A DNA stretch of 64,000 nt. Origin: Cryomorphaceae bacterium 1068. GTDB taxonomy: Bacteria > Bacteroidota > Bacteroidia > Flavobacteriales_D > Cryomorphaceae. The stretch lies in contig JAPVXR010000006.1 of assembly GCA_027214385.1 (NCBI GenBank), positions 124,001 through 188,000 of the forward strand, given 5' to 3'. This document shows positions 15,076-36,184 of this stretch, piece by piece. The stretch's first letter is position 1; each line of letters opens with the position of its first letter. The notes beneath the pieces were generated by a model. The model was not told the DNA's origin. It saw only the letters and a program-made list of their open reading frames with translations, and did no database searches. A program made the position numbers and the translations under genes.

Positions 15076-15583
15076 GACTCGGACACGTGTCCCCCGCTGG
15101 CGGGGGTGGCGCAGCTTGACGAAGGAGAGATGTGACGGAGGTGGGAAATCGATTCCCTTATCATTCTGGATTTTTTCCTCCCTCGTCTTCTCCTCCGCAA
15201 GCTCCGTCGAATCCACTCCCTCCGAAGGGAGACACACAATCGCGTACGATTTATACTTCTTTAATTAGCTTAATTATAACCATTGAACTAGAACCCAAAA
15301 TAGACTAGTACACGTGTCCCCCGCTGGCGGGGGTGGCATTCTGCGACAAAGGAGAAGAATGACGGGGGTGGGAAGTGAATTCAGAAGGCGAAGTCTGCCC
15401 TCCCCCGCCTCGTACCTCGGCACCCCCTCCAAAGGGAGATAGCATCGCGTACATTTTTAAGCCTTGATTTAGTTCATTAGTCCACTTTTTACCAAACCAA
15501 AAAATAGACTAGTACACGTGTCCCCCGCTGGCGGGGGTGGCATTCTGCGACAAAGGAGAAGAATGACGGGGGTGGGAAATCGA
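15076..15583. repeat. Three tandem GC-rich palindromic repeat units
   Basis: Units begin at 15076, 15303 and 15507 (spacing 227 and 204 bp). Each opens with GACTnGnACACGTGT, then the near-palindrome CCCCCGCTGGCGGGGG and TGGC, then (C)GACAAAGGAGAAGAATGACGGGGGTGGG; copies 2 and 3 are almost identical and copy 1 is more divergent. The two complete units end with a CTCC(G/A)AAGGGAGA hairpin and ATCGCGTAC. Copy 3 abuts the stop codon of the minus-strand DUF1508 gene and may act as its terminator. The pattern is typical of Bacteroidota extragenic palindromic repeats, amplified here in tandem. Confidence 0.8.
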
Positions 15584-22181: not shown

Positions 22182-25100
22182 TTACGCTACGCCTGAGCCC
22201 TTATTGCCGCCAAAAAGTTTGCCGAATTGCGGCAGGCTGACCTTGCCCGACAATTGGCTAACAGCACCTGAGAAACTTGCGATGACACCGATAGCTCCCG
22301 CCAATGCGTTGAACATATTTGGCATCAACTCATAGATAAACAGCAGCATGGCAAGGATTAGCAAAAGCAGCGCCAGACGGATCTGACCCCAGCTTCCGTT
22401 CTTTTTAGAAAAGCGCTCGATGTTCATGATTTCCGTGGTGGAAACTCCGTTTTTCACAAAGAGGTTGAAACTGCGGTGAAACAACTCCATGCGATAGTTA
22501 TTTCGGTTGTAGCTCAGGATACCTTTTCGTTTCAACTTCATCAGCATAAAGCTGTCACGGGCATTCATTAGTCCGTCTTCGGCCAGATCGTAAACGATAA
22601 ATCGCTCTTTGACCGAAAGGGAATGCCATACGCTGAAGTAGATGGGCGAGTAATAACTCTTGTTGAGGTAATCATCGTAGGCATCGTCAAAGCCTATCTG
22701 CCCGTTGATGGCGGCACTATCACCAAAGCGTTCCTTCTCTAGCGGTAGCAAGAATTCGCGGTAGCTCCTAAACCACTCCTTGAGGTAGAGCATAACCTCA
22801 CGAGACGATGCAGCGGCTTGAGCTCCGGTATTCATCTCGTACCATTTTTCCTCTATTTGAGTGATGGTTAGATCAGAAAGAATCACGCTACCCTTATTAT
22901 AGAGAACTGTTTCTTCCATATATCGTGTAAGCTTTCTCAAGCGATTGAGGTATTCGTCAGTTACATCTTCGGGAAACCAGAAGCGGATGACGATGGCTTT
23001 GGCATTTACCAATTCAGGTGGAATATGGACTATGTCGTATTCCTCATCGAGGAAGGAAGTATTTCTACCAAAATCGATAAATCCCAAATCAGCACGAGTT
23101 AGTTGGAGGGATTTTAGAATGGTAGTTCGGCGCGACCTGGGAATACCCACCAGAAATAGGCGCATTGGCAAATTGGTTTCTAATTTATGGGCCTGGTATT
23201 TTTCCAAGCTGTCGATTACGCTATAGGCGCGCACTCTACCGCCTTGTAACTCGGGGGAGATATTGAATACGATACGGTTTAAGAAAAGGCGCACCAAGGC
23301 ATAAAGTAAGAGTAGGCTGAAAATGAAAAACAGCGTGTTTCGACCAAATGTACCTGAACCGGCTTCATTGCTTTCCGCCGTATGGGATTTCTCAGGCCTT
23401 TTTTCACTTTTACCCGAAAGGCTATCAGCCGGGTTCGGGTCAGGTGCGAACTCTTTCTTCTTTTTACAATATCCATGTCCTTTTGCGGAAACATAGAGCG
23501 GATCATACGAATAGCGATTTGCAAAGAGCGAGAAAATGGGCTGGAAATAATGAGCGTATTCATAGGTCTTAACCTTTTGGCTAATGTCTGTACCGAAATA
23601 AAGCTCATCGGTCATAAAGGTCTCCCATTCTTCGTCGAGATGAAGTTGGTTAATTTTGGTCGTGATGCTATTGTACTCTCCGTACAGCTGCAAGAGATCA
23701 GCATTTTCATCTTCGAGTTGTTGGTTAATTTGATTTCCCGAAAGGGCCTGAAACGAGTTGGCAACAATTTCTTCGCACTTATCAGATATGAGGAAAAATG
23801 GGAAGACCAGAATGGCGAGAATCCAAGCATACATGCTGAAGATGTATACGTTTTTCACCGTTTTGCTCTGCAAGATAAATTTGAGCTTGTGAAAGAGGCT
23901 GCTCCTTTTGAGGGCAAAAGGTTTTCCTTTGGACTTCAGCATTTGTTTGTGTACCAACAATCCAAGCGAAATGGCGATCAACGTGTAAGCTGTCAGAATA
24001 ATTTTGTCAGGTGCACCGCCGGGAATGCCACCCGGTAAAAACAGAATGGCACTGAAAAGGATTATAAACGTGGTAAAAAAGTAGCCCCTCCGTCGGAATA
24101 GTCCTTTTGGGGAATCGTTGTAAGAAAGTAAGAGTGGCCTCAACAATCCAAAGAGCAAGACTTGAACGACACCATACCTGATGAGGGCGCTCAGCCCGTA
24201 TCGGTATAAGAATACACCGATAATCACTCCCAGCAAAGAGATGATGCTGAGAAAAAGATAGGTCAACCCATCCTGACGCTCGGGAAAGATAGTGTCGTAA
24301 AAATTGGATTGACGAAAAAACCTGGATTCCTTTTGATTGATGGAAAAGAGTGATTGAAGAATCAGCAACAGAAAGGAAGCCATCAGGATTCCAAAGCTAG
24401 CCAGCGCTGAGAGCAGTGAGGTAAGACCTGTATGCCACTCTACTAAATCGTGATTGGCAAAGGTGATGAGAAAGAAGGCAGGGTCTTTTCCTCTTTGAGT
24501 GACAATACCATCAATGGGGGTAACCTGCCCTATGAATTTATCGCGGCCAAAATCAAAATGACCCTGCAGTGGCTTACCGTATGTGATGGATTGGTCAATG
24601 AATTCCATCCCGACGAGATCGGTCCTGAGGTTTTTGAAGTTGTTCTTGGCCTTTTTGGAGCTAAAGAGCACATTCATATCCCGATCGATCAAGGCATAAC
24701 CAAAACCCTCGGGCGGTATGCTCCACATCAGCGATTTGAGGTCTACACTAATACCGTTTATTTTATCTCCCTTCGGATAGGAAATAACTGCCTCCTTTTG
24801 AGCGCGGGAATAAGAGAAAACCGATTCGAGGTATAACTCTTGGAAATCATGATTGGGATGCACAAGAAGATAGGCGTCACTGCTTTTAACCTTCTTGATG
24901 TAATCGCGACCTGAGAGGTTGACGTATTTTCGAAAAAACTTCCCAATATCACTTACGGTATCCCAATTGCAACCAAACTCGTCGTAGGGAAGAATGATGC
25001 GCTCTATGGTGCCATCGGTGGTTTCGAAAAATTCATGAAAAAGGATGTCATCGCTATTTTTCCAATACCCCATGGAATCGAAATCGAAGTCTTTAGTATG

Positions 25101-26423
25101 CGTTACGAGCGAATCAATCTCATTGACAAAATTCCCCTTCATCCGATTGCCATAGTGTTCGATGTCATGCTCCAACTGATGCTCCACCTCGCTGTAATGG
25201 TGAACGGTAAAGAATATGAGTGAACCAAGAAAAACCACAAAAAGCAAGGAGAGTGCTGAGAGGAGAACATCCCGATCGCGCAATCGTTCCCATTCGTTAA
25301 TCACGAAAACCTTGATCAAGGGTACTGCCCCGATGAGCGTAAAGGTGAGCAGCAAAACCAAGATCAAAACGAAATAGTCAATCTCCCGCAGGTATTCGTT
25401 GTAATCATCTTTACTGATAAATCCTGATAAGTAAAGACTTTTATCACCCAATTGAATGTATCTCCGAAACTCAACGTAGGGCTTGGAGTTAACTTGCGTT
25501 TCAAATATATTGACTCCGAAGCGGGTGGCTATTGAATCGCTCTTGTCACCATCAAACTTTCGCATTGGGTTAATGACTCTAGGGTCGCTGCTGTAAAACA
25601 CATCTTCTGAATCAGCCGAATGAAGAACTAAGCATTGGAAAATCTCATTTTCCATGACATCGCTCAAAAGAGTGTCTAAAGTTACTCTGGCGGTAAATTT
25701 CTCATTGGTGAGCACATCTTCTGCTTCGACCTGAGTGCGGCTTGGTTGGACAGAGCCATATGGAGTTTGATATAAATAATTCTTCGTATAGTCGCTGCTC
25801 TCACCCCCCATTATCAAGAAAGCTTCTTTTTGCATTCTCATTAGGTTCCTTAAATCCTTTTCAATCGCCACTCGTTGAAGGGAATCTTTGTTTGCTTTCT
25901 CCCTTAGTTGATCGCGGAGTGCATTGGTCAGCGAGTCGTTCCTTACTTCGTGAATGTGTTTGAGCTCCAAGTATGCCGGCTCCCCATCACGACTGTGGTG
26001 AAAAGTTATATCCGGTTTTAACTCTTCCCATTCTCCCGTGTAGATAGGTAAGGGTTTGATATGATTGGAAATGATGGTTTTTTGAGCATCAAGCCACCAT
26101 AGCCTGATGTCGCAACTATCTCCTCCCGGATTTATAATTGTATCAAAATTGAATCGATTGATATTGACTGAAACGTCCTGAGAAGGATAGTCGGCCATGT
26201 ATGAAAGCTGGGTATTGGCATCGACCCGCTGCCCCATAAAAGACTTTAAAAAATCTTGTTTATTTGAAATCCCTTCATCTATGCTGGCTAGGGTTCTTAC
26301 TCCTTTATTAATTAGGATATCCTCCTTGTGCGGAATGTAATACTGAGAATAGTAAAGATAACTCCCAACCACTAAGGCTAAGATGACGTAAATTACCATT
26401 GCGGGCGTAGATACCTTCTTCAT
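22182..26423 (-). CDS. 1413-aa multi-pass membrane protein with extracytoplasmic sensor domains and degenerate P-loop
   Basis: A very large membrane protein with no family that I recognise. In order: an N-terminal TM helix (about 8-25); a roughly 320-residue extracytoplasmic domain; two TM helices (about 350-410); a second extracytoplasmic domain to about 660; about six TM helices; a third soluble segment; another TM helix; a cytoplasmic domain beginning LVGIPRSRRTT, where a Walker A glycine-lysine is replaced by arginines; a winged-helix-like part (SVKERFIVYDLAEDGLMNAR); and two C-terminal TM segments. The layout suggests a signalling receptor with a STAND-like but nucleotide-binding-impaired core. 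It is the third gene after YdjC and patatin genes, 53 bp behind patatin, so it probably shares their transcript. Confidence 0.8.
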   Translation of the reverse strand: MKKVSTPAMVIYVILALVVGSYLYYSQYYIPHKEDILINKGVRTLASIDEGISNKQDFLKSFMGQRVDANTQLSYMADYPSQDVSVNINRFNFDTIINPGGDSCDIRLWWLDAQKTIISNHIKPLPIYTGEWEELKPDITFHHSRDGEPAYLELKHIHEVRNDSLTNALRDQLREKANKDSLQRVAIEKDLRNLMRMQKEAFLIMGGESSDYTKNYLYQTPYGSVQPSRTQVEAEDVLTNEKFTARVTLDTLLSDVMENEIFQCLVLHSADSEDVFYSSDPRVINPMRKFDGDKSDSIATRFGVNIFETQVNSKPYVEFRRYIQLGDKSLYLSGFISKDDYNEYLREIDYFVLILVLLLTFTLIGAVPLIKVFVINEWERLRDRDVLLSALSLLFVVFLGSLIFFTVHHYSEVEHQLEHDIEHYGNRMKGNFVNEIDSLVTHTKDFDFDSMGYWKNSDDILFHEFFETTDGTIERIILPYDEFGCNWDTVSDIGKFFRKYVNLSGRDYIKKVKSSDAYLLVHPNHDFQELYLESVFSYSRAQKEAVISYPKGDKINGISVDLKSLMWSIPPEGFGYALIDRDMNVLFSSKKAKNNFKNLRTDLVGMEFIDQSITYGKPLQGHFDFGRDKFIGQVTPIDGIVTQRGKDPAFFLITFANHDLVEWHTGLTSLLSALASFGILMASFLLLILQSLFSINQKESRFFRQSNFYDTIFPERQDGLTYLFLSIISLLGVIIGVFLYRYGLSALIRYGVVQVLLFGLLRPLLLSYNDSPKGLFRRRGYFFTTFIILFSAILFLPGGIPGGAPDKIILTAYTLIAISLGLLVHKQMLKSKGKPFALKRSSLFHKLKFILQSKTVKNVYIFSMYAWILAILVFPFFLISDKCEEIVANSFQALSGNQINQQLEDENADLLQLYGEYNSITTKINQLHLDEEWETFMTDELYFGTDISQKVKTYEYAHYFQPIFSLFANRYSYDPLYVSAKGHGYCKKKKEFAPDPNPADSLSGKSEKRPEKSHTAESNEAGSGTFGRNTLFFIFSLLLLYALVRLFLNRIVFNISPELQGGRVRAYSVIDSLEKYQAHKLETNLPMRLFLVGIPRSRRTTILKSLQLTRADLGFIDFGRNTSFLDEEYDIVHIPPELVNAKAIVIRFWFPEDVTDEYLNRLRKLTRYMEETVLYNKGSVILSDLTITQIEEKWYEMNTGAQAAASSREVMLYLKEWFRSYREFLLPLEKERFGDSAAINGQIGFDDAYDDYLNKSYYSPIYFSVWHSLSVKERFIVYDLAEDGLMNARDSFMLMKLKRKGILSYNRNNYRMELFHRSFNLFVKNGVSTTEIMNIERFSKKNGSWGQIRLALLLLILAMLLFIYELMPNMFNALAGAIGVIASFSGAVSQLSGKVSLPQFGKLFGGNKGSGVA

Positions 26424-26476
26424 TTCGATCGATTTAATTCAATTCTTATACTGGCAAATCCAGGTTAAACGAGTTC

Positions 26477-27574
26477 TTAACCCGCCTCCATCAATAGGTC
26501 GACGTAGGCATCTAAGGTGTGTGCTTTCTCAGAAGATTCATTGGCGTTCTTAATCGTGACGAGCCCACTCGACACCAGTCTTTCTATATTTCCTCGGTCA
26601 GCATTAGACATATCAGAATCGTATGGCGGCTTTTGGCCAGGCGGCAATTTGGGGTAATCGACACGCTTGAAATTCTTGCGATCATTCTCTGTACTTAGCG
26701 AATCGAAAAGCAATGCTACCTGGTGATTGACCATATCCAGGCCTCCGTCCATCATGATCTCGGGAGTCTTCTTGGCCCAGTCCAGCATTCCCCATTTGTG
26801 TGCATCAGAGGTAAATCCTAATTCGGGCCGCCCACCACCTGTTCCCAGCGATAGCAGGAGCATATTCTTGGCCGTGGGAAATTTCTTGTTGGGATCATCC
26901 TTGTCTTGCCAATCGGGGAAACGAGTTTTCCGCCCTTCTGCGTAGGCACACATAGAAGGATTGTTGGCAAAAACGCCTCCATCTACATTCACCATTTTGT
27001 CCTTTCTCGCACCACCAATCGAGAATATATGAGCGGGGTCAAAATAGGTTGGTGCAGCAGAGGTGGAGCGAAGAACATCTTTTACCAAAAAATCTCCTGC
27101 ACCCTCGTCATCCTCTCTACTGTTAAAAAACAGAGCGTCGCGGTAGGTGAGATTGTAAGACGTGATGATGCAGGGCTTCAGCAATTCACTTAATTTCAAA
27201 GAGCCCAATTTCTCATCAAAGAGTTTCTCCAGATTTTTCGCTCCAAACTTTGACGCCTTGAATAGCCTCTTGAACATAGATTTTCGCTTGATGGATTTAT
27301 TGAAGATCGTTTCGCCGTGTTTCACGTAGAAATCAAGGGCATCTTGTGCGGTGTACTTAGGTCTGCCATTCTCATCCGGCACCAAAAGGAGTGCACCGAG
27401 AATAGCTCCCGTACTTGTTCCGACAATCATATCGACATAGTCTGCCAGCCTGGCATCAGGACCCTTGACAGCTTGAATTCTCTGCTCCATATAAACGAGA
27501 ACTTGTGCGGGTATCACTCCTCTGATTCCTCCACCATCGATGGAAAGAATCCTTACTTTATTTCGCGTTTCCAT
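26477..27574 (-). CDS. Patatin-like phospholipase
   Basis: A 365-residue patatin with all catalytic elements: oxyanion-hole motif GGGIRG at 14-19, nucleophile elbow GTSTG with S54, and D198 in the DGG motif. It lacks a signal peptide, so it should act on lipids from the cytoplasmic side. Bacterial patatins of this CapV-like type include phage-defence effectors, but housekeeping lipid-acyl hydrolases look alike, and no cyclic-nucleotide synthase is nearby. The start is 4 nt after the YdjC-family gene, and the large membrane protein follows. Confidence 0.88.
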   Translation of the reverse strand: METRNKVRILSIDGGGIRGVIPAQVLVYMEQRIQAVKGPDARLADYVDMIVGTSTGAILGALLLVPDENGRPKYTAQDALDFYVKHGETIFNKSIKRKSMFKRLFKASKFGAKNLEKLFDEKLGSLKLSELLKPCIITSYNLTYRDALFFNSREDDEGAGDFLVKDVLRSTSAAPTYFDPAHIFSIGGARKDKMVNVDGGVFANNPSMCAYAEGRKTRFPDWQDKDDPNKKFPTAKNMLLLSLGTGGGRPELGFTSDAHKWGMLDWAKKTPEIMMDGGLDMVNHQVALLFDSLSTENDRKNFKRVDYPKLPPGQKPPYDSDMSNADRGNIERLVSSGLVTIKNANESSEKAHTLDAYVDLLMEAG

Positions 27575-27578
27575 ATTT

Positions 27579-28544
27579 TTATTTTAAATTTTTCCATGAT
27601 TCAAATTCAACTCCGTTGGGTCTTTGCAGAGACATCAGTGATCTCATCTCCGTCATGCGGCCGTCTACATATTTGTGATTCACGCCTGAATACCAACCCT
27701 TCTTCAGCAGTCCTTTCAGCTTTTTGCGCTTGGCTATATTGTTTTCGATGATATGAAATACCACTTCCACATGGTTGTGCTCTTTCACGTGTTTATCAAA
27801 TACTTCGGTCATCGCCTTCTTCTTGCGGACCAACTCTCCGGCCAGATCGCCTTCGCTTAACGAAAGGATCGGTGGGGGCCCGTAATGATCTGAAAAGAGA
27901 ATAGAGGGATGGGCAACCCCATGTACCTTAATGAGCTTAGGATACTTCTTCCGATACGTCTCTCGCCAGCTTTTATAAGACAAGCGTGTTCTTTTCTTTC
28001 CCGTAAGTTGGTAGTTGAGAAGCCCCATGGCTTTTTGGTAGCGGTCAAATTGATCTTCGGGAACGAAAAACGGCGATCGAATGGGAAGACCTTGCTCCTT
28101 GGCTACCTTGAGGTATACCTCAAAGTAATCTTCAAACCACGATAAGGTATTGTTGTGGCAAGTGAGGTGCCTGATCTCGGTAATTCCTTTTAGGGCTTCT
28201 ATTTGAGCATGAAGCTCTCGGTAAAGGCTATCGAGCTCGCGCGTCTTTTCTGCTTTGCTCGCTCTTCGCACCTTGTTGTATGGTTTGAAAACTTTTCCAT
28301 TTACAAAATTCTTGGTGACTTGTGTCAATGGACTGCCCGAACAGGTGGTGAGGTGGCAACCTATCTCCAGGTTCACTCCTCCTCTCTTGGCAGCGGCTTT
28401 CAGCCGCTCTATTTTCTTACTCAATCCGAATCCATTCGGAAAAACAGCCACACTATTGATTTTTCCTGCCTCGGCGGCTTGGATCACCGCATTATCGATT
28501 TGGTCATAAACGCCAAAATCGTCAGCTGTAAAGATGACTTTCAT
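27579..28544 (-). CDS. YdjC/ChbG-like carbohydrate deacetylase
   Basis: About 321 residues from the ATG at 28542-28544 (MKVIFTADDFG). TADDFG at 6-11 supplies the metal-binding aspartate, and EIGCHLTTCSGSP and HLTCHNNT supply histidines typical of YdjC-family hydrolases, which deacetylate acetylated oligosaccharides. No signal peptide is present. An upstream in-frame ATG at 28589 would spoil the usual N-terminus. First gene of a three-gene minus-strand operon with patatin and a giant membrane protein; the substrate could be an envelope glycan or glycolipid. Confidence 0.8.
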   Translation of the reverse strand: MKVIFTADDFGVYDQIDNAVIQAAEAGKINSVAVFPNGFGLSKKIERLKAAAKRGGVNLEIGCHLTTCSGSPLTQVTKNFVNGKVFKPYNKVRRASKAEKTRELDSLYRELHAQIEALKGITEIRHLTCHNNTLSWFEDYFEVYLKVAKEQGLPIRSPFFVPEDQFDRYQKAMGLLNYQLTGKKRTRLSYKSWRETYRKKYPKLIKVHGVAHPSILFSDHYGPPPILSLSEGDLAGELVRKKKAMTEVFDKHVKEHNHVEVVFHIIENNIAKRKKLKGLLKKGWYSGVNHKYVDGRMTEMRSLMSLQRPNGVEFESWKNLK

Positions 28545-28777
28545 AGTATAAAGGGTATTTTGAAATGAAAAATGGAAGCTTGAACTCAAGAAGAATGAAA
28601 TCCACCTGAAAAGATGAATACGTCTAAAAAACTTGAATTAACGGCTTGACAAATGCTCGCCTAAATGTTCTGGGCGAAGGGTATTTGTTCAGGTTTGGAA
28701 GGTCATAGTTAAAGGGAGGTTAGGTTAAAAATCAATTGGTTGAGGTCACAATGTAATTATTATTCGACAAAGGGCTA

Positions 28778-28836
28778 CAGGAAATTTCCTGACCGAAAGG
28801 GGGGTAAAACCCTGTAAGAATTCAGGAAATTCCCTG
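28778..28836. promoter_or_regulatory. Paired palindromes and conserved box upstream of the small-protein gene
   Basis: A perfect 14-bp palindrome CAGGAAATTTCCTG (28778-28791) and a near copy CAGGAAATTCCCTG (28823-28836) have centres 45 bp apart. Between them, read on the minus strand, is TACCCCCCTTTCGGT, identical over 15 bases to a sequence at 31007-31021 upstream of the histidine kinase. It looks like operators of a dimeric regulator, possibly the nearby NarL-type response regulator. The surrounding 28545-28907 stretch has no gene. Confidence 0.55.
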
Positions 28837-28907
28837 AATTTAATCAAGAGGTCGGGGCCATTCAGAAAAAATGTATTACTTCGGATGAAACTTTTAAACC
28901 TTAAACT

Positions 28908-29276
28908 ATGCCGAATACAAATCCTCATAGTATTGCCTACAGTGATGCGAAACAAATGATCGATGAATACCGTCGTTACCCACGTCCTATAGTTGGTTCA
29001 GAAGACAGCCAGGGACAATTGATTCAATTGGATGAGCTGAGTTTTTCGAAGTCGGCACTTCAAGTTTTTGTTGGAGTTCCATGTGATTCGATTCGTATCT
29101 TTTTTGCTGTCGATGCCACGGGGAGAGATAGCAGCGGTAATTTAACTTTCCCCCAAGATCCGGCTAAGCAGACTTATACCGCGATTATAGCCGGGGTTAA
29201 AGATGGAGCGATTGTTCACAGTACGGCATTGGATAAATTGATTAAGGGACCGCCTCACCCGATTGTAAATCCTTAA
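28908..29276 (+). CDS. Small soluble protein, unknown
   Basis: A 122-residue protein with no signal peptide and no recognised family. The N-terminal 50 residues are helical (YSDAKQMIDEYRRYPRPIVG), followed by a beta-rich part (LQVFVGVPCDSIRIFFAVDA) and a Pro-rich C-terminus. It is preceded by the palindromic element and followed by its own terminator, so it seems to be a separately controlled single gene heading the membrane-protein/two-component cluster. Confidence 0.7.
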   Translation: MPNTNPHSIAYSDAKQMIDEYRRYPRPIVGSEDSQGQLIQLDELSFSKSALQVFVGVPCDSIRIFFAVDATGRDSSGNLTFPQDPAKQTYTAIIAGVKDGAIVHSTALDKLIKGPPHPIVNP

Positions 29277-29306
29277 CTACCGAAAGACTCTAAAAATGAA
29301 TTGAAA

Positions 29307-29345
29307 GGGCAAATGGTTGAAGTCATTTGCCCGCTCATTTTTTTA
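29307..29345 (+). terminator. Rho-independent terminator
   Basis: GGGCAAATG (29307-29315) pairs perfectly with CATTTGCCC (29324-29332), followed by GCTCA and a T-run to 29344. It separates the small-protein gene from the membrane-protein gene that starts 20 nt later. Confidence 0.9.
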
Positions 29346-29364
29346 CTCCCGGAATTAGCACAGA

Positions 29365-30039
29365 ATGACCGCCGAAGATTTTTTGAACACCTTCGTCCGC
29401 TATGGGTACGGCCCTTATTTCCTCATCCTGATGAGCGGATTCCTATTTGGCATCATTCGTTGGAATCAACTATCAAAAGCAGGAATAGGCGTATGGTCTA
29501 TTGTAGCCATTAGCTTTCTCATAGAGTCAGTGGGATCTTACCTTTTGATCGATACCGTTCCATCCAACAATCCTTCATTTCACCTTATCAATTGTTTGCA
29601 CTTTGTAGCCTACGGATGGACATTTTCAAAATTTGCAATCAACCCTCTACTTGCCCGAATTTTCCTCTATGGGGGAGTTCTGCTAGCGGCATACTCCGTT
29701 GCCAGTACTTTCTTAATTGAAGGAGTATATAACTATCCTACCCGGGCGATTACCGTTTTTAACGGGGCAATGGTTTTGGGAGCGCTATTCATTTTTCGAG
29801 ATATGCTTAAGCAACCTAGTCCGGTTTCTTTGCCAAGGCAAAGCGTCTTTTGGTTTGCTACCGCTACACTTATCTTCTATTCTTGTACATTCTTCACCTA
29901 TGCTCTGCTTAGTTATTATGGAGAACACGGCGAATATTTACCAACGTGGGCTAGGTATCTAAACCATGGGATGAACTATTACCTCTACATTTCATATATC
30001 ATTGCTTTGTGGTTTGATTCCAAAAGAAGCAGTCATTAA
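29365..30039 (+). CDS. Six- or seven-helix integral membrane protein, paralogue pair member 1
   Basis: A 224-residue protein made almost entirely of hydrophobic helices. It ends in YYLYISYIIALWFDSKRSSH. No family recognised. It is clearly homologous to the following gene along its whole length (for example FLIL/FLFGI, NCLHFVAYGWTFSKFA, FWFATATLIFYSCTFF), so the two arose by duplication. The pair lies just upstream of a NarL-type kinase and response regulator and may be a membrane sensor or regulated output; that is inference. Confidence 0.75.
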   Translation: MTAEDFLNTFVRYGYGPYFLILMSGFLFGIIRWNQLSKAGIGVWSIVAISFLIESVGSYLLIDTVPSNNPSFHLINCLHFVAYGWTFSKFAINPLLARIFLYGGVLLAAYSVASTFLIEGVYNYPTRAITVFNGAMVLGALFIFRDMLKQPSPVSLPRQSVFWFATATLIFYSCTFFTYALLSYYGEHGEYLPTWARYLNHGMNYYLYISYIIALWFDSKRSSH

Positions 30040-30080
30040 ATCTTCAAGCAGATAAAGCATGCCGCTAACTCAATGTACAG

Positions 30081-30783
30081 ATGACCACTGAAGATTTTTT
30101 AAATTTTTTCGTCTTTAGAGGTTATGCTGTCTACTATTTGATTCTGATCAGTGGTTTTCTTTTTGGTTTAATACAATTCAAGCGCCTTTCACTTGCTGCC
30201 AGGGGAGTTTGGATGATTATTACCGTAAGCCTTTTTCTGGAATTGATTGGGAGTTACCTATCCATGGTGATTAGAAACTCTAGTCCGAGTACCCATTTCG
30301 TAAATATCTTTCACTTGTTAGCTTACGCATATGCCTTTTCAAAATATGCTACAAACAAAAAGCTGGAGCGCGGTTTTATTATTGCCGGTATACTGTTGGC
30401 ATGCTTCGCTGTGATCAATCTGGTGTGGATTCAAGGACTCTACCAAAGCCCGACGAAATCTACAATGATGCTGAATGTAGCCGTGGTCTTGGGCTCGCTG
30501 ATCACCTTTTACACCATGATAAAGAAGCCCAGTCAAACACCTCTGTTGAAGCAAGAATTATTCTGGTTTAATACCGCTACCCTCGTTTTCTATTCGAGTA
30601 CTTTTTTTCTCTTTTGCCTTGTACGATTATTATCTGAAACGATACTATTCAACAGGAGAGTACATGCCCGCGTGGGCCACAAATCTGGTTATAGGTATGA
30701 ACTACTATATGTATAGTTCGTATTTCGCGGTGTTATGGATTGATTCAAAACGGGCTACCAAGAACATAGTTGGAAAGCCCTGA
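30081..30783 (+). pseudogene. Membrane protein paralogue 2, frameshifted in a T7 run
   Basis: The annotated frame encodes 211 residues ending at 30716 with an unrelated tail. Reading on in the next frame from about 30613 gives FALYDYY ... GEYMPAWATNLVIGMNYYMY followed by SSYFAVLWIDSKR and a stop at 30781-30783, which matches the end of the upstream paralogue. Removing one T from the seven at 30602-30608 restores a continuous 233-residue protein. The change is therefore a single-base insertion in a homopolymer: recent mutation, slippage-based switching, or a sequencing error. Confidence 0.85.
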
Positions 30784-30821
30784 AGGAGATTGGAAAGCTC
30801 AATAATTTCTAAATCAATAAA

Positions 30822-30853
30822 AAATCCCCTGCCAATGCATTGGCGGGGGATTT
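30822..30853 (+). terminator. Hairpin terminator after the membrane-protein pair
   Basis: AAATCCCC (30822-30829) pairs with GGGGATTT (30846-30853) around TGCCAATGCATTGGC, itself self-complementary. It starts about 38 nt past the reconstructed end of the frameshifted gene, which supports that longer gene end. The remaining 280 bp up to the kinase hold only the regulatory element below. Confidence 0.8.
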
Positions 30854-30976
30854 AGAGCTTGGTCTTACAAAAGCTCATGTCTCATAGCCCGGGACAAGGT
30901 GTGGTTAGCGAATGAATAGCTTATTCTTTCTGTCTTACTCTGAGACAAAGGTAAAGCCATGTTTCGGATCACTCTA

Positions 30977-31036
30977 CAGGAAAAACCCTATTTTTTTTCA
31001 GGAAAATACCCCCCTTTCGGTTGGGGAAATCACCCC
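30977..31036 (+). promoter_or_regulatory. Conserved box and CAGGAAA repeats upstream of the histidine kinase
   Basis: CAGGAAAAACCCT (30977-30989) and CAGGAAAATACCCC (30999-31012) run into TACCCCCCTTTCGGT (31007-31021), followed by TGGGGAAATCACCCC. The 15-base core is identical to the complement of 28792-28806 upstream of the small-protein gene. The position upstream of the kinase start suggests autoregulation of the two-component operon. Confidence 0.5.
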
Positions 31037-31136
31037 ATGAGTCTTTTTTTCCAAATGTCAATTTCCTTTGGGTAAGAATAGAGTCACTCCACTCATACTT
31101 CTTATCTTCGACCTATCGCAACTGATAATAGGAAGA

Positions 31137-31907
31137 ATGCAAAGCGAAGAGTTTGTACTCATATTCGGAACTTCACTTTTTTTGATTTTAGCAGGATTCA
31201 TCGTGCTTTTTGCGGTTCAATACAGGAAAGAACAGTTGAAGTTCACTATTGAAAAGCAACGCTTCAAGCAAGAGATTCTACAAGCTGAAGTGGAGATCAG
31301 AGAGAAGACTTTAGAAGATGTGGGCAAGGAGCTTCACGATAATCTGGGACAAATCGCCTCTTTAACGCGAATCAACTTGGCAGGAATGCGATCAGGACAC
31401 AGCAATCCCGAGAAGGTAGATCAATCCATTACCTTAATGGATAAGCTCATCGAGGAAATGCGCAATCTTTCACATCAATTGAATGATGGCGTTCAGATGC
31501 GACTCAGCCTTTCTGAACAGATAGAACAGGACGTAAGAAGATTGAATAATTTAGAAGGTCTAGAGGTATGTTTTTCAATGAATGCACCCGCCTTGCACAT
31601 GTCTGGAGATAAAGCCGTACTGATTTACCGCATTTTTCAAGAAGCACTAAGCAATGTTCTCAAGCATTCTCAGGCAAACGAACTCAGTATACGTGTAGAA
31701 GAGGAAGAAAAAAATATTAAATTAACCGTCGAAGACAATGGGATAGGACTCCCTGTAGAGAATTTAAAGCAAGACGGTATTGGTATGAAAAACATGCGAT
31801 CGAGGGCCGCATTGTTGGGAGCTGAATTTTCAGTATCCAATCGAAATCCCAAGGGAACTGCTTTATCCTTAAAGCTGAACAAAGAAAAATTGAATGAGCA
31901 AAATTAG
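31137..31907 (+). CDS. NarL-type sensor histidine kinase (HisKA_3)
   Basis: About 256 residues from the ATG at 31137, preceded by GGAAGA; an upstream in-frame ATG at 31068 would extend it by 23 residues. One TM helix near the N-terminus (about residues 7-28) and no large extracellular sensor. The dimerisation/phosphoacceptor motif is ELHDNLGQ and the ATPase has FQEALSNVLKHS, DNGIGLP and GIGMKNMRSRA. With so short an outside region it probably senses the membrane or a partner such as the upstream multi-pass proteins. It overlaps the response regulator gene by 14 nt. Confidence 0.88.
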   Translation: MQSEEFVLIFGTSLFLILAGFIVLFAVQYRKEQLKFTIEKQRFKQEILQAEVEIREKTLEDVGKELHDNLGQIASLTRINLAGMRSGHSNPEKVDQSITLMDKLIEEMRNLSHQLNDGVQMRLSLSEQIEQDVRRLNNLEGLEVCFSMNAPALHMSGDKAVLIYRIFQEALSNVLKHSQANELSIRVEEEEKNIKLTVEDNGIGLPVENLKQDGIGMKNMRSRAALLGAEFSVSNRNPKGTALSLKLNKEKLNEQN

Positions 31908-32547
31908 AATTGGCGTTGTAGACGATCACAGGCTTTTCAGAGAAGGTATTGCAAATATGATTGAGGACTGGGAAGGACCTTATGAAGTTATTCTTCAAGC
32001 CGACAATGGAGTCGACCTAATGAAAAAACTGGAAGAGAACGAAAGCGACCCACATATCCTCATTATGGATTCAGAAATGCCCTTGATGAATGGAGCTCAA
32101 ACCACCTTTAAGGTCAAAGATGAATATCCCGAAATTATGATTCTTGCTTTGACGATGCTCGATGGAAGAACGGACTTTATGCGATTGGTTAAAGCGGGAA
32201 TAGATGGCTTTTTGAATAAAAATACGAGTCCCGAAGAGGTAAGAGAAGCCTTGGACCGACTAATCGATTCAGGCCATTATTTCAAAGGAGGGCAGCTAGA
32301 TCAAATGCTTCTTCTTCTTCGGACCAACGATAGTCCGTTTAAAGAAGTTCAATCATTGACGGATAAAGAGTTGATGTTCATCCAATATGCCACATCCGAA
32401 CTAACGTATAAAACAATAGCTGAGAGGATGTCGGTGAGCGAGAAAACCATTGATGGCTACCGTACAAAGGTTTTTGAAAAGCTGGACGTCAAGACGCGTG
32501 TAGGTATGGTCATTCGCGCCGTGCAAGAAAAACTGGTGAAGCTTTGA
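31894..32547 (+). CDS. NarL/LuxR-family response regulator
   Basis: A 217-residue regulator: receiver domain with VVDDHRLFREG (acidic pocket), phosphoacceptor D59 in ILIMDSEMP, a conserved lysine in FLNKNTSP, and a C-terminal LuxR-type helix-turn-helix (LTDKELMFIQYA ... YKTIAERMSVSEKTIDGYRT). Coupled to the kinase by a 14-nt overlap. Dimeric LuxR-type regulators bind short inverted repeats, so the CAGGAAA palindromes at 28778-28836 and 30977-31012 are plausible targets. Confidence 0.9.
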   Translation: MSKIRIGVVDDHRLFREGIANMIEDWEGPYEVILQADNGVDLMKKLEENESDPHILIMDSEMPLMNGAQTTFKVKDEYPEIMILALTMLDGRTDFMRLVKAGIDGFLNKNTSPEEVREALDRLIDSGHYFKGGQLDQMLLLLRTNDSPFKEVQSLTDKELMFIQYATSELTYKTIAERMSVSEKTIDGYRTKVFEKLDVKTRVGMVIRAVQEKLVKL

Positions 32548-32653
32548 TGCCTCAATCTTTTAGCTTCACAACTATCAATTCTAATTTATTGTCGAAATAG
32601 TTAAGCAGGATCGATTCCATTTCAATCTCTCCTTTGCATACCAAATACGCCCT

Positions 32654-33031
32654 TCAAAAAATAAAGTAATAGCTCATACCGAAATTCCAAATCGTCGTTA
32701 CGGCAATGGCCAATAATTTGGCCATGTAGAAGTTCAGCCCTACTTTTTCGTTAATGAACCAAAGGACGCTGTTATTGATCAGCAAGCCAACGAGTCCAAC
32801 CCCTATAAAGCTGAGGCACTCCGTGGAGATGTCGGAGTTAACGCTTTCAAAACTCCAAATTCGATTGAGCCAATAATTGGAGGTCGCCGCAGTGATAAAC
32901 CCAATACTATTGGATACATATTTATTCAAGTGAAGTTTTTCTTTGCAGAGATAGGTAAGCAAGAAATCTACAAATACACCGCTCACACCAACTATACCGA
33001 ATTTGATGAACTTGCGGATTACTTCTGACAT
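32654..33031 (-). CDS. GtrA-family membrane protein
   Basis: A 125-residue four-helix protein of the GtrA family, with the FIKFGIVGVSGVFVDFLLTY opening and NYWLNRIWSF motif in the middle. GtrA proteins are linked to translocation of lipid-linked sugars or cell-surface polysaccharide synthesis. No glycosyltransferase lies beside it. It ends the minus-strand unit starting with dihydroorotase, 10 nt behind it. Confidence 0.85.
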   Translation of the reverse strand: MSEVIRKFIKFGIVGVSGVFVDFLLTYLCKEKLHLNKYVSNSIGFITAATSNYWLNRIWSFESVNSDISTECLSFIGVGLVGLLINNSVLWFINEKVGLNFYMAKLLAIAVTTIWNFGMSYYFIF

Positions 33032-33041
33032 TGCCTTCAGT

Positions 33042-34388
33042 TTAACTATCCCTATTTTTTTCCAACCTCATACCTCTGTGACTTTCGTCAAAAGATCCTT
33101 CATCGTACACCATATGACCGTTCACCCAAGTATTGGTAACTTGTGAGTGAAAGGTGGTTCCTTCCAAAGGAGACCAACCGCATTTGTAGAGAATGTTCTC
33201 TTTGCTCACCGTCCACGGTCGATTCATGTCTACCAGGGTAAGGTCGGCGTAGTAGCCCTCTCGAATGAAACCGCGTTTTTTAATGCTGTATAGAATCGCG
33301 GGATTGTGGCACATCTTCTCGGCCAAAAGCTCCAATGTGACTTTTCCTTGCTTCACAAACTCGAGCATCGCGACCAAAGCGTGCTGGACCAACGGAGCTC
33401 CAGACATGGATTGGAAATATGGCTTATCCTTTTCCTCCCATGCATGTGGGGCATGATCGGTTGTGATAAGATCTATCCTTCCGTCTATCAAGGCTTCGAG
33501 CAATCCTTCTCGATTTTCCTTGGACTTGATCGCAGGGTTCCACTTGATCTTCTTGCCCAATCTTTCATAGTCTTCATCAGAAAACCAGAGGTGGTGCACA
33601 CATACTTCTGTGGTAATACGCTTTTCCTCTAAGGGAATATCGTTGCGAAAAAGATCTGTCTCTTTGGCGGTGCTCAAGTGAAGAATGTGGAGGCGGGTAT
33701 TGTGCTTTTTGGCAATGTCCAATGCGCGCACCGTACTGGAATAGCAAGCTTCCACACTCCGAATGATCGGGTGAAACTTCACCGGCACATCGTCACCGTA
33801 TTCCGCGCGGTATTTCTCTTCGTTCTTTTCGATGATCTCTTCTCGCTCTGAATGGATCGTGATGATAGCCGGACAGTTGGCGAAAAGCTTCTCCATAATC
33901 TCGGGGCTATCGGCTAGCAGGTTGCCCTTTTTGGTAAAGTACAGTCCATCGTCCGAAACAGCCAGTAATTCCGAAACATCAGTTGCCAGCACCTCATCGA
34001 GGTTATCGGCATTGACGCCGAGCCAGAAGCCGTAATTGGCCAATGACTTTCCTTTGGCAATCTCGTATTTCTCTTCGAGCAGCTCCATGTTGAGCACGTT
34101 GGGAACGGTATTGGGCATATCAATAAACGAAGTGGTTCCACCTGCTATTGCCGCTTTACTTTCGGTATAGAGATCGGCCTTATGCGTAAGTCCGGGATCG
34201 CGAAAATGCACCTGCCCGTCGATCACTCCCGGAAAGAGTACCTTACCTGTAACATCAATCTCTTTGGCGTCTTCCACCTCACCTACCTCACCTACTTTGG
34301 CGATCAATTCACCTTCGATAAGGACGTCGGCCTTGATTACTTTTCCTTCGTTTACAATATGGGCGTTGCGGATGATGGTCTTTGACAT
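33042..34388 (-). CDS. pyrC: Dihydroorotase (class I family)
   Basis: About 448 residues from the ATG at 34386-34388; the in-frame ATG at 34427 adds 13 residues with no family likeness. The cyclic amidohydrolase signatures are present: GVIDGQVHFRDPGLTHKAD near residue 54-72, HLSTAKE, EVCVHHLWFSDED, and TTDHAPHAWEEKD. It should convert carbamoyl-aspartate to dihydroorotate in pyrimidine synthesis. Two usual metal ligands are altered: the first His of HxH is Q59, and the position of the carboxylated lysine appears to be D147 (VSDDGLYFTKKGN). Similar substitutions exist in some dihydroorotases, so activity may be kept with one metal. Confidence 0.85.
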   Translation of the reverse strand: MSKTIIRNAHIVNEGKVIKADVLIEGELIAKVGEVGEVEDAKEIDVTGKVLFPGVIDGQVHFRDPGLTHKADLYTESKAAIAGGTTSFIDMPNTVPNVLNMELLEEKYEIAKGKSLANYGFWLGVNADNLDEVLATDVSELLAVSDDGLYFTKKGNLLADSPEIMEKLFANCPAIITIHSEREEIIEKNEEKYRAEYGDDVPVKFHPIIRSVEACYSSTVRALDIAKKHNTRLHILHLSTAKETDLFRNDIPLEEKRITTEVCVHHLWFSDEDYERLGKKIKWNPAIKSKENREGLLEALIDGRIDLITTDHAPHAWEEKDKPYFQSMSGAPLVQHALVAMLEFVKQGKVTLELLAEKMCHNPAILYSIKKRGFIREGYYADLTLVDMNRPWTVSKENILYKCGWSPLEGTTFHSQVTNTWVNGHMVYDEGSFDESHRGMRLEKNRDS

Positions 34389-34524
34389 GTATGTTATTTC
34401 AAGTTTCCTCAAAGGTAAAGTTGTCATTGAAATGAGAATTCAATATTCAGAAAAAACACGTTGTAAGCTTCAGTGTTAACCGAATCAATTCAGTACTTTT
34501 AAAATGAACCAAATAATCCAAGCT

Positions 34525-35427
34525 ATGAAACACACTATCATCACTGCCTTTTTTCTCCTTTTTATTGGCACGCTCCATTCCTTCTCCCAATCTTGGATGA
34601 CGGATAGTTTGAAATGGAAAGAGACCCGAGAACTAAATTTCGGAGATACCTACACGACGAGTTTTGTGGTTTGGGCAACAGAGTCAATCAATGATACTAT
34701 TTATCGACGTATCCATCTAACTCAGTGCTCTGTTGCACCAGTTGCAGACCTTTTCACATGTCACTTAAGAGCTGAAGGTAATCAGGTATTTGTGCGTGTT
34801 GAAGGCCAAGAGTATCTACTCTACGATTTTGATTTAGAAATTGGTGATGTTTATACCCCTCAGATCTGTGAAATGGCTGGTGAAATCCAAGTATTGGATG
34901 GAAGCTTCGCAAATTATGAAGTTACTGAAGTCTCAACCACGATAATCAACGGTGAGGAGCGAAGAGTAATTTCATTTGACACGTTTGGCTCAGGAGCGTA
35001 TGATTTGCAGTGGATAGAAGGGGTCGGTTCGAATAAAGGCTTATTTCACGGTACGGAGGTCTGCGCCATTGATGTCATATCCAGGCTTACTTGCTTCGAG
35101 CGCAATACGGTAGATGAATACATGAACCCTGAATTTGACACCTGTTGCGTTTTTGCATTAAGCGATGAGCTAAGTGATATGGGTTCGGCAAATGGTCTGG
35201 TGGCATACCCAAACCCCATCTCCTCATCTGAGGCCCTGAAGTGGTCTGAAGGATTTGAAAGTGGCCATCTAAGTGTTTTTACCCAAGAAGGTAAATTGAT
35301 ATACAGTGAAGAAATCTCCAAGCATTCTAAATTAACTCCGAGTGATATGGGTTTATCCCCCGGACTTTACCACATAAATCTAGAAGTGGAAGGCGAGCTG
35401 CTTCATCAGAAAATGGTTGTCTATTGA
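34525..35427 (+). CDS. Secreted protein with T9SS C-terminal sorting domain
   Basis: About 300 residues from the ATG at 34525, which opens a signal peptide MKHTIITAFFLLFIGTLHSF; an in-frame ATG at 34504 is an alternative. The C-terminal 75 residues form a type A Por sorting domain (VAYPNPISSSEALKW ... LSPGLYHINLEV ... KMVVY). The middle part is beta-rich with six cysteines and is not recognised. It should be exported by type IX secretion and attached to or released from the surface. Confidence 0.8.
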   Translation: MKHTIITAFFLLFIGTLHSFSQSWMTDSLKWKETRELNFGDTYTTSFVVWATESINDTIYRRIHLTQCSVAPVADLFTCHLRAEGNQVFVRVEGQEYLLYDFDLEIGDVYTPQICEMAGEIQVLDGSFANYEVTEVSTTIINGEERRVISFDTFGSGAYDLQWIEGVGSNKGLFHGTEVCAIDVISRLTCFERNTVDEYMNPEFDTCCVFALSDELSDMGSANGLVAYPNPISSSEALKWSEGFESGHLSVFTQEGKLIYSEEISKHSKLTPSDMGLSPGLYHINLEVEGELLHQKMVVY

Positions 35428-35428
35428 T

Positions 35429-36184
35429 TTATCGAAAGACCGAAGTCATTTTCCGCCATACCCGCTTATGCAGGGGAGCCTTTACTACTGCTACTGAGAA
35501 AGCAACCATATTGTCCTCAGTGACAGCATCAAAATTCACATTGGTCATCGCTCGATTTGGAACCAACATTTCCTGTCTGGTAGTACCGATGTAATTAAAA
35601 ACCAAGGTAATTTCAGCCAATGAATCAGACACCTCAGAAATGTCAAGTGCATAGTTACCGTCAAAATCTGTGGTTGTCCCTATTTCCGTTCCCTTTACCA
35701 TTATGGTTGCAAACGGAATGGGCTCCCCGTCACCTTGGTCACTAAAGTATGTTGCTTTGCCGCTGATGATAATGGAATCTTGTTGAGAGGTAGTTGGTAC
35801 GGTAGAAGCTTCCGTTTCTTTTAACTCATTACCGGATACTTCCGGAGTCTGTTCCACGGGAGTTTTGATCTCGACGCTTTGACCTTGAATGACGCTTGGC
35901 GAAAGCAAGCTTAACAAACTCGCGAAGGAAGCAATGGGTATCAAAGACCTTTTGGCGGTTCTCGAACTGCCGTTGCCCAATTGATCGGGACTGTACAATC
36001 CGCAAACTGCCGTTTCGCTTTTGGCGTGCGCAAGCGCTATTTCACGACTCGACAGTTTACGAAAATCAGTGATGTGCTTCTCGCATTTCTGGCAAAGTCG
36101 CTTCTCTCCCACCCGCTTCATATCCGACCAGTGCTGATCGCATGGACGGAGGTTGGAAAGATTGACTTTATCGACTTCGTGCAT
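35429..36184 (-). CDS. Membrane protein with N-terminal zinc-ribbon-like motif and CarboxypepD_reg domain
   Basis: A 251-residue protein. The N-terminal cytoplasmic part has C14 and the pair CQKC at 31-34, a pattern that precedes a single TM helix in many Bacteroidota proteins (here about 79-100). Residues 135-225 form a CarboxypepD_reg-like beta domain (ISGKATYFSDQGDGEPIPFA ... GTTTDFDGNYALDIS). Convergent with the T9SS cargo gene, with one base between the stops. Function unknown; an envelope-sensing role is possible. Confidence 0.7.
   Translation of the reverse strand: MHEVDKVNLSNLRPCDQHWSDMKRVGEKRLCQKCEKHITDFRKLSSREIALAHAKSETAVCGLYSPDQLGNGSSRTAKRSLIPIASFASLLSLLSPSVIQGQSVEIKTPVEQTPEVSGNELKETEASTVPTTSQQDSIIISGKATYFSDQGDGEPIPFATIMVKGTEIGTTTDFDGNYALDISEVSDSLAEITLVFNYIGTTRQEMLVPNRAMTNVNFDAVTEDNMVAFSVAVVKAPLHKRVWRKMTSVFR

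What the first reader, a model, noticed from the sequence alone, without database searches (positions are those of the whole stretch)
28778..31036. Same composite regulatory element before the small protein and before the kinase
TACCCCCCTTTCGGT is identical at both sites (opposite orientation) and each is beside CAGGAAA-type palindromes, in total four boxes. A two-gene regulon of the local NarL-type regulator, including autoregulation, would explain it.
Basis: partly seen in the sequence, partly recalled or inferred. Interest (0 to 1): 0.55.

Follow-up and report, generated by a model that had tools for sequence, protein, structure and literature searches.

The report
Triple-box promoter arrays of one regulator
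Two similar DNA switches beside a bacterial sensor system are probably three-site landing strips for that system's own gene regulator, and the same kind of strip lies at seven other places in this genome, two of them in front of genes that resemble bacterial immune proteins.

Summary
The repeat is real but is part of something larger. Each site is a 59-60 bp array of three palindromes (AGG-N6-CCY) 22-24 bp apart: six boxes, not four. The identical 15-mer is mostly half of the middle box plus its spacer; exact 15-mer repeats alone are at chance level here. The genome has nine such arrays, none inside an ORF of 100 aa or more; 35 other genomes show no enrichment. The array also precedes the equivalent cassette (small protein, seven-helix membrane protein, histidine kinase, NarL-type regulator) in two other genomes, where it is the best model hit, so the cassette regulator is the likely binder. 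On 7 of 22 array sides a Bacteroidota -7 element starts exactly 23 nt outside the array (P about 4e-10), placing the nearest box near -42, as for an activator. In the window these promoters point away from the small-protein and kinase genes: one toward a YdjC-patatin operon, one into a predicted ~125-nt RNA. Elsewhere arrays precede both TIR genes that one family scan detected. A two-gene regulon is wrong; a local NarL-type regulon is supported. Binding and transcription are untested.

The parts
28778..28836 (-). Array A: three boxes, 28778-28791, 28801-28814 and 28823-28836
   Evidence: Model R1 E 1.0e-8 in the whole genome (training member); pattern exact
30977..31036 (+). Array B: three boxes, 30977-30990, 30999-31012 and 31023-31036
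   Evidence: Model R1 E 3.2e-10 (training member); pattern exact
28748..28755 (-). -7-like element TACATTGT, 22 nt outside array A, facing the YdjC gene
30946..30953 (-). -7 element TACCTTTG, 23 nt outside array B, facing away from the kinase gene
30815..30940 (-). Predicted short transcript driven from array B, ending in hairpin 30853-30822 with a T-run; no ORF of useful length
   Evidence: Terminator -18.4 kcal/mol; fold z -2.05, 10 of 200 shuffles as good; the simple terminator scan did not list this hairpin
27579..28544 (-). YdjC-like gene (PF04794), first gene of the operon that array A's far-side promoter faces
26477..27574 (-). Patatin-like phospholipase, next gene of that operon
   Evidence: PF01734 1.2e-24; PADLOC phospholipase effector model 1.7e-58
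28908..29276 (+). Small protein (122 aa) of the cassette, no Pfam, NCBIfam or PADLOC match
   Evidence: relatives in 8 other genomes
29365..30039 (+). Membrane protein 1 of the cassette, predicted bundle of seven long helices
   Evidence: pLDDT 85.9; no Pfam match
30081..30716 (+). Membrane protein 2, a paralogue; its similarity to the first continues in another frame past 30694
   Evidence: Repeat families D1-D3
31137..31907 (+). Sensor histidine kinase
   Evidence: HATPase_c 2.9e-15; HisKA_3 21.8 bits, below its cut-off of 24
31894..32547 (+). NarL-type response regulator (217 aa), proposed array binder
   Evidence: Response_reg 1.1e-20, GerE 1.6e-10

Best explanation
Arrays A and B are two of nine triple-box operators for the NarL-type response regulator of this cassette. 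Regulator dimers are proposed to line up on one face of the DNA (boxes about two helical turns apart). On most arrays an outer box, in four of them extended to CCTGTAG, lies 22-23 nt from a Bacteroidota -7 element, so the bound regulator would sit near -42 and activate in class II fashion. In the window this drives two leftward transcripts: from A toward the YdjC-patatin operon, and from B a predicted terminated RNA of about 125 nt. Arrays elsewhere precede two TIR-domain genes, a lipoprotein gene and genes of small proteins. Shown by sequence: the arrays, their placement outside long ORFs, the 23-nt spacing, and arrays at the cassette of two other genomes. Inferred: which protein binds, the sign of regulation, the transcripts, and whether the cassette's own promoters also respond.
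For: Nine arrays in the own genome, 9 of 9 outside ORFs of 100 aa or more, which cover 84% of the 115 kb examined. Two-box pattern at up to 1 mismatch: 14 hits against 1 control in the own genome, 31 against 28 summed over 35 other genomes (my sums). The first non-training hit of the model in 25 genomes is the cassette of G017 (E 7.7e-4), and the best hit in G421 (E 0.25) is its cassette. TAnnTT starts at exactly 23 nt on 7 of 22 array sides; the other 50 positions from 0 to 50 together hold 9; binomial P 3.8e-10, 1.9e-8 after correction for 51 positions. CCTGTAG-N17-22-TANNTT occurs twice in the window, both at these arrays, against 0.12 expected. Six other regulators of this type in the genome are at most 30% identical.
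Against: No binding or transcript data. Three of nine own arrays (C9, C19, C2) lack the -7 element at 22-23 nt on either side, and C9 has only two boxes. G529's cassette shows no box in the 330 nt before it, and G605's contig has only 160 nt there, without a box. Single boxes are also about two-fold enriched (592 hits against 274), so sites outside arrays may exist. G023, where the profiles found no cassette, has exact two-box pairs at two places, not followed. The model scored only 150 candidates in most genomes. ORFs of 90-97 aa overlap arrays C18, C3 and C2; I take them as spurious.
Confidence: 0.6

Rival explanations
1. Autoregulation: the arrays act on the genes next to them, the small protein (71 nt from array A) and the kinase (100 nt from array B), as activator or repressor sites, and the divergent promoters are secondary.
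For: Arrays lie just before the cassette's first gene in the window, G017 and G421, and GGGT-type boxes in G002, G005, G008 and G019. The kinase side has TATCTTCG 26 nt before its start codon and G017's cassette side has TACTTTCG 39 nt from the array.
Against: Neither the small-protein side of A nor the kinase side of B has TAnnTT within 50 nt of the array.
Confidence: 0.25
2. The arrays are bound by another regulator of the genome, not the cassette's own.
For: Six other NarL-type regulators exist in the genome, and other families were not tested.
Against: The array is found at the cassette of two other genomes, and box type goes with the recognition helix of the cassette regulator across the seven genomes with boxes.
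Confidence: 0.11
3. The arrays are a dispersed repeat or mobile element, or a chance repeat, without a regulatory role.
For: The 15-mer is identical at two neighbouring places, and exact 15-mer repeats are common in the window.
Against: The nine arrays differ in sequence and keep mainly box letters and spacing. The -7 element keeps a fixed distance. No Rfam match in window 24000-36000 or the eight array loci scanned.
Confidence: 0.04

Closest known systems
NarX/NarL-type two-component systems (HisKA_3-type kinase with LuxR/NarL-family regulator)
   Same: Kinase and regulator domains fit; palindromic operator boxes of an adjacent regulator gene
   Different: Comes with an undescribed small protein and a seven-helix membrane protein; operator of three boxes at 22-24 bp; no nitrate link
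Bacteroidota primary-sigma promoters (-7 TAnnTTTG; passage in PMC7366714)
   Same: -7 elements at array-borne promoters
   Different: An array lies where the upstream contact would be, at a fixed 22-23 nt
Prokaryotic immune effectors: Cap12/Pycsar TIR, Thoeris ThsB TIR, CBASS patatin phospholipases
   Same: Genes behind arrays C3, C20 and A match PF10137, PF08937 and PADLOC phospholipase effector models
   Different: I saw no annotated cyclase or ThsA partner in the stretches read, but not every neighbour was scanned; no defence function is shown

Membership tests
NarL/LuxR-type response regulator | Receiver domain plus GerE helix-turn-helix | tested here: met
   PF00072 1.1e-20 and PF00196 1.6e-10, both over cut-off
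NarL/LuxR-type response regulator | Binds palindromic boxes as dimers | not testable with these tools
   Boxes are palindromic; binding needs an experiment
HisKA_3-type sensor histidine kinase | HisKA_3 dimerisation domain and HATPase_c | tested here: inconclusive
   HATPase_c over cut-off; HisKA_3 21.8 bits against a cut-off of 24
Class II activator-dependent promoter | Activator site centred near -42 at a fixed distance from the core element | tested here: met
   By sequence only: 7 of 22 sides at exactly 23 nt and one at 22; 14 sides without it
Class II activator-dependent promoter | Transcription depends on the bound activator | not testable with these tools
   No expression data
Cap12/ThsB TIR effectors (array targets) | TIR domain of the named family | tested here: met
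   PF10137 2.8e-35 and PF08937 9.4e-19; under the generic TIR_2 model both are below the curated cut-off
Anti-phage defence system | Protection against phage | not testable with these tools
   Only family matches
GPCR/rhodopsin-like seven-helix proteins (membrane protein) | Shared fold beyond a common helical bundle | tested here: inconclusive
   Best Z 14.8 (rmsd 3.9, 208 aligned), at the level common for helical bundles; no Foldseek E <= 0.001

The most novel reading that the evidence does not exclude
An undescribed four-part sensory cassette (small protein, seven-helix membrane receptor, histidine kinase, NarL-type regulator) controls dispersed, immune-like effectors that would attack NAD or membrane lipids (two TIR genes, one patatin) and short RNAs through triple-box activator promoters: a two-component switch that arms standalone effectors scattered over the genome.
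Probability: 0.3. Interest if true: 0.78.

Novelty: new variant of a known kind. Interest (0 to 1): 0.6.

Why it matters
It turns a local repeat into a testable regulon of an uncharacterised sensory cassette, with predicted binding sites, promoter positions and targets. If true, it would show a two-component system setting the level of standalone TIR and patatin effectors. My searches of the open-access paper library listed no paper on this (listings only).

Tried and rejected
The exact 15-mer as the functional unit: rejected, since it is not enriched at up to 3 mismatches and 15-mer repeats are at chance level. Its first part, TACCCCCC, recurs in the middle or right box of arrays C9, C3 and C19; its TTTCGGT spacer occurs only in A and B among the own arrays.

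Single boxes as sites: CAGGRNNNNYCCTG at 1 mismatch gives 592 hits against 274 controls (each place counts on both strands; only the first places are listed). Three listed places were fetched, and all three lie inside long genes (L048-L050). Model hits inside genes were dropped: own C1:590733 (E 0.02), G605:C35 (0.02), G299:C75 (0.003). Own C2:289732 (E 0.0015) has three boxes, lies outside ORFs of 100 aa or more, and was kept.

Small-protein fold: pLDDT 70.8, no PDB match at E <= 0.001. Rfam: no match in window 24000-36000 or in eight loci. Base pairing of the predicted B transcript with nine 5' regions: no z below -1. Sigma-70 scan: 5 found, 9.6 expected, as one would expect for Bacteroidota.

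Relatives of the regulator by collection scan: one 25% hit in a Candidatus Epulonipiscium MAG, not used.

G002 and G005 (GGGT-type boxes) also seem to have -7 elements about 22 nt outside an outer box, pointing away from the cassette; I measured this by hand after seeing the rule, and in G005 I assigned the outer boxes afterwards, so it is not counted. I saw no such element in G008 and G019. G421 has CACCTTTG at 23 nt on the far side (one mismatch), also not counted.

Full report
What is in the sequence. The 15-mer is exact at 28792-28806 (-) and 31007-31021 (+) and nowhere else in the 4.32 Mb genome. Around it each site shows three palindromic boxes, close to CAGG-R-N4-Y-CC, 22 bp apart between boxes 1 and 2 and 23-24 bp between boxes 2 and 3. 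The 15-mer covers the right part of the middle box and the following spacer. The window holds 10 other isolated exact repeats of 15 or 16 bases, so the identity alone is not evidence. Box pairs at this spacing occur 3 times against 0.02 expected.

The neighbourhood. Left of array A are minus-strand genes: YdjC-like, patatin, and a 1413-aa protein without a Pfam match. Right of it are the small protein, two copies of a membrane protein (the second apparently frameshifted), then array B, a histidine kinase and a NarL-type regulator.

The cassette. A kinase search of 12 genomes gave its best foreign hits in G017, G005, G002 and G008. I read 7 of the 16 loci returned; these four carry a small protein, a membrane protein and the kinase, with a NarL-type regulator nearby. 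The small protein as a single query matched only the own genome among 80. Profiles of it matched 6 of 299 genomes drawn from the order and 4 of 395 drawn from the class, the own genome included each time. All 8 foreign genomes have the cassette by ORF reading and alignment. Four of them (G017, G005, G002, G008) had been found through the kinase and built the profile; the other four (G019, G421, G529, G605) were found by the small protein alone. In G005 the kinase and the regulator are separated by an orphan LuxR-type gene and a second set of small and membrane proteins. Eight small proteins and five membrane proteins scanned had no Pfam match; neither window protein matched PADLOC; five small proteins and both window membrane proteins matched no NCBIfam model. 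The membrane protein is predicted as a bundle of seven long helices, pLDDT 85.9.

Arrays elsewhere. The two-box pattern at up to 2 mismatches gave 51 hits against 28 controls in the own genome. At up to 1 mismatch it gave 14 against 1 there, and 31 against 28 summed over 35 other genomes (my sums); two of those 35 have exact pairs, G017 at its cassette and G023 at two places that I did not follow. Fetching the own-genome places gave arrays at C6, C9, C18, C20, C3 and C19. A sequence model built from eight arrays was run on 25 genomes. The training arrays scored E 3e-10 to 7e-5. The first non-training hit was the cassette of G017 (7.7e-4), then own C2:289732 (0.0015) and G299:C75 (0.003, inside a gene). 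The best hit in G421, weak at E 0.25, is at its cassette. The model scored 150 candidates in most genomes, so weak arrays may be missed. That makes nine own arrays; none overlaps an ORF of at least 100 aa, while such ORFs cover 84% of the sequence examined. Cassettes of G002, G005, G008 and G019 have GGGT-type boxes instead; G529 shows none, and G605's contig starts 160 nt before the gene, without a box.

Promoter geometry. In one search I set the array edges and scanned downstream stretches for the -7 consensus; the recurrent distance showed there. One search then scanned both sides of 11 arrays (nine own, G017, G421) for TAnnTT, with edges taken from the 14-bp boxes; for the six own sides that fit, the edges are those already set. 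It starts at exactly 23 nt on 7 of 22 sides (B-left, C6-left, C18-left, C18-right, C20-right, C3-right, G017-right) and at 22 nt on A-left. The other 50 positions from 0 to 50 hold 9 hits in all. The binomial P for 7 of 22 is 3.8e-10, or 1.9e-8 after correction for 51 positions; own arrays alone give 2.6e-8 corrected. TAnnTTTG is the -7 consensus given for Bacteroides; the same passage says that in Flavobacterium the -7 was confirmed but no -33 motif was found (PMC7366714), so the lack of a -33 motif here is not special. CCTGTAG-N17-22-TANNTT occurs twice in the window, both times at these arrays and both on the minus strand, against 0.12 expected. The nearest box centre is then about 42 bp upstream of the start, the place of a class II activator (general knowledge). 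C9, C19 and C2 lack the element.

Which genes. By this geometry A faces the YdjC-patatin operon, about 200 nt away; its patatin matches PADLOC phospholipase effector models at 1.7e-58. B faces a stretch that ends in a hairpin with a T-run (-18.4 kcal/mol). The simple terminator scan did not list that hairpin, which I put down to a mismatch in its stem. The predicted RNA folds with z -2.05, 10 of 200 shuffles as good. C18-right and G017-right likewise run into terminators about 100 nt on, before any long gene; at C18 a 92-aa ORF overlaps the array. C3 precedes a Cap12-type TIR protein (PF10137, 2.8e-35), and C20 a ThsB-type TIR protein (PF08937, 9.4e-19) followed by a TPR-S protein. A TIR_2 scan of the whole genome at E <= 0.01 found exactly these two, both below that model's curated cut-off. 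TIR proteins of other families could be missed, and how many patatins the genome has was not tested. Targets at C6, C9, C18, C19 and C2 are a lipoprotein, small proteins and a 64-aa ORF without a Pfam match over cut-off among those scanned (the C2 ORF was not scanned).

Who binds. The cassette regulator is favoured: arrays of this type sit at its cassette in three genomes, and its six relatives in the own genome are at most 30% identical. Across cassettes box type goes with the recognition helix: SEKTIDGYR or SVKSIDSYR with AGG-N6-CCY boxes (window, G017, G421), SPR-type helices with GGGT boxes (G002, G005, G008, G019). This is a correlation on seven genomes.

Literature. I saw search listings only, and passages of PMC7159879 and PMC7366714. 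None that I saw describes this cassette or such control of TIR effectors; subscription journals are mostly not in the library.

Noticed in passing
window 30081-30784: The second membrane-protein gene looks frameshifted: similarity to its paralogue continues in another frame after about 30694, beyond a T-rich stretch near 30600-30620.
   Followed up: partly
window 15083-15580: A GC-rich unit is repeated three times in part and twice at length, about 205-227 bp apart.
   Followed up: no
L042 4690-5313 and L047 235-855: Two similar proteins (the first with a fibronectin type III match) are encoded within 1-3 kb of arrays C6 and C19.
   Followed up: no
L039 2720-3307 and L038 4961-5503: In G002 and G005 an orphan LuxR-type gene lies on the opposite strand beside a small-protein gene; the two proteins are 24% identical, E 7e-14.
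   Followed up: partly
G023 C80:1900-1933 and C207:4940-4973: Exact two-box pairs in a genome where the small-protein profiles found no cassette.
   Followed up: no
L038 2818-8386 (G005): The cassette holds three small proteins and two membrane proteins, as if the small/membrane pair multiplies.
   Followed up: no
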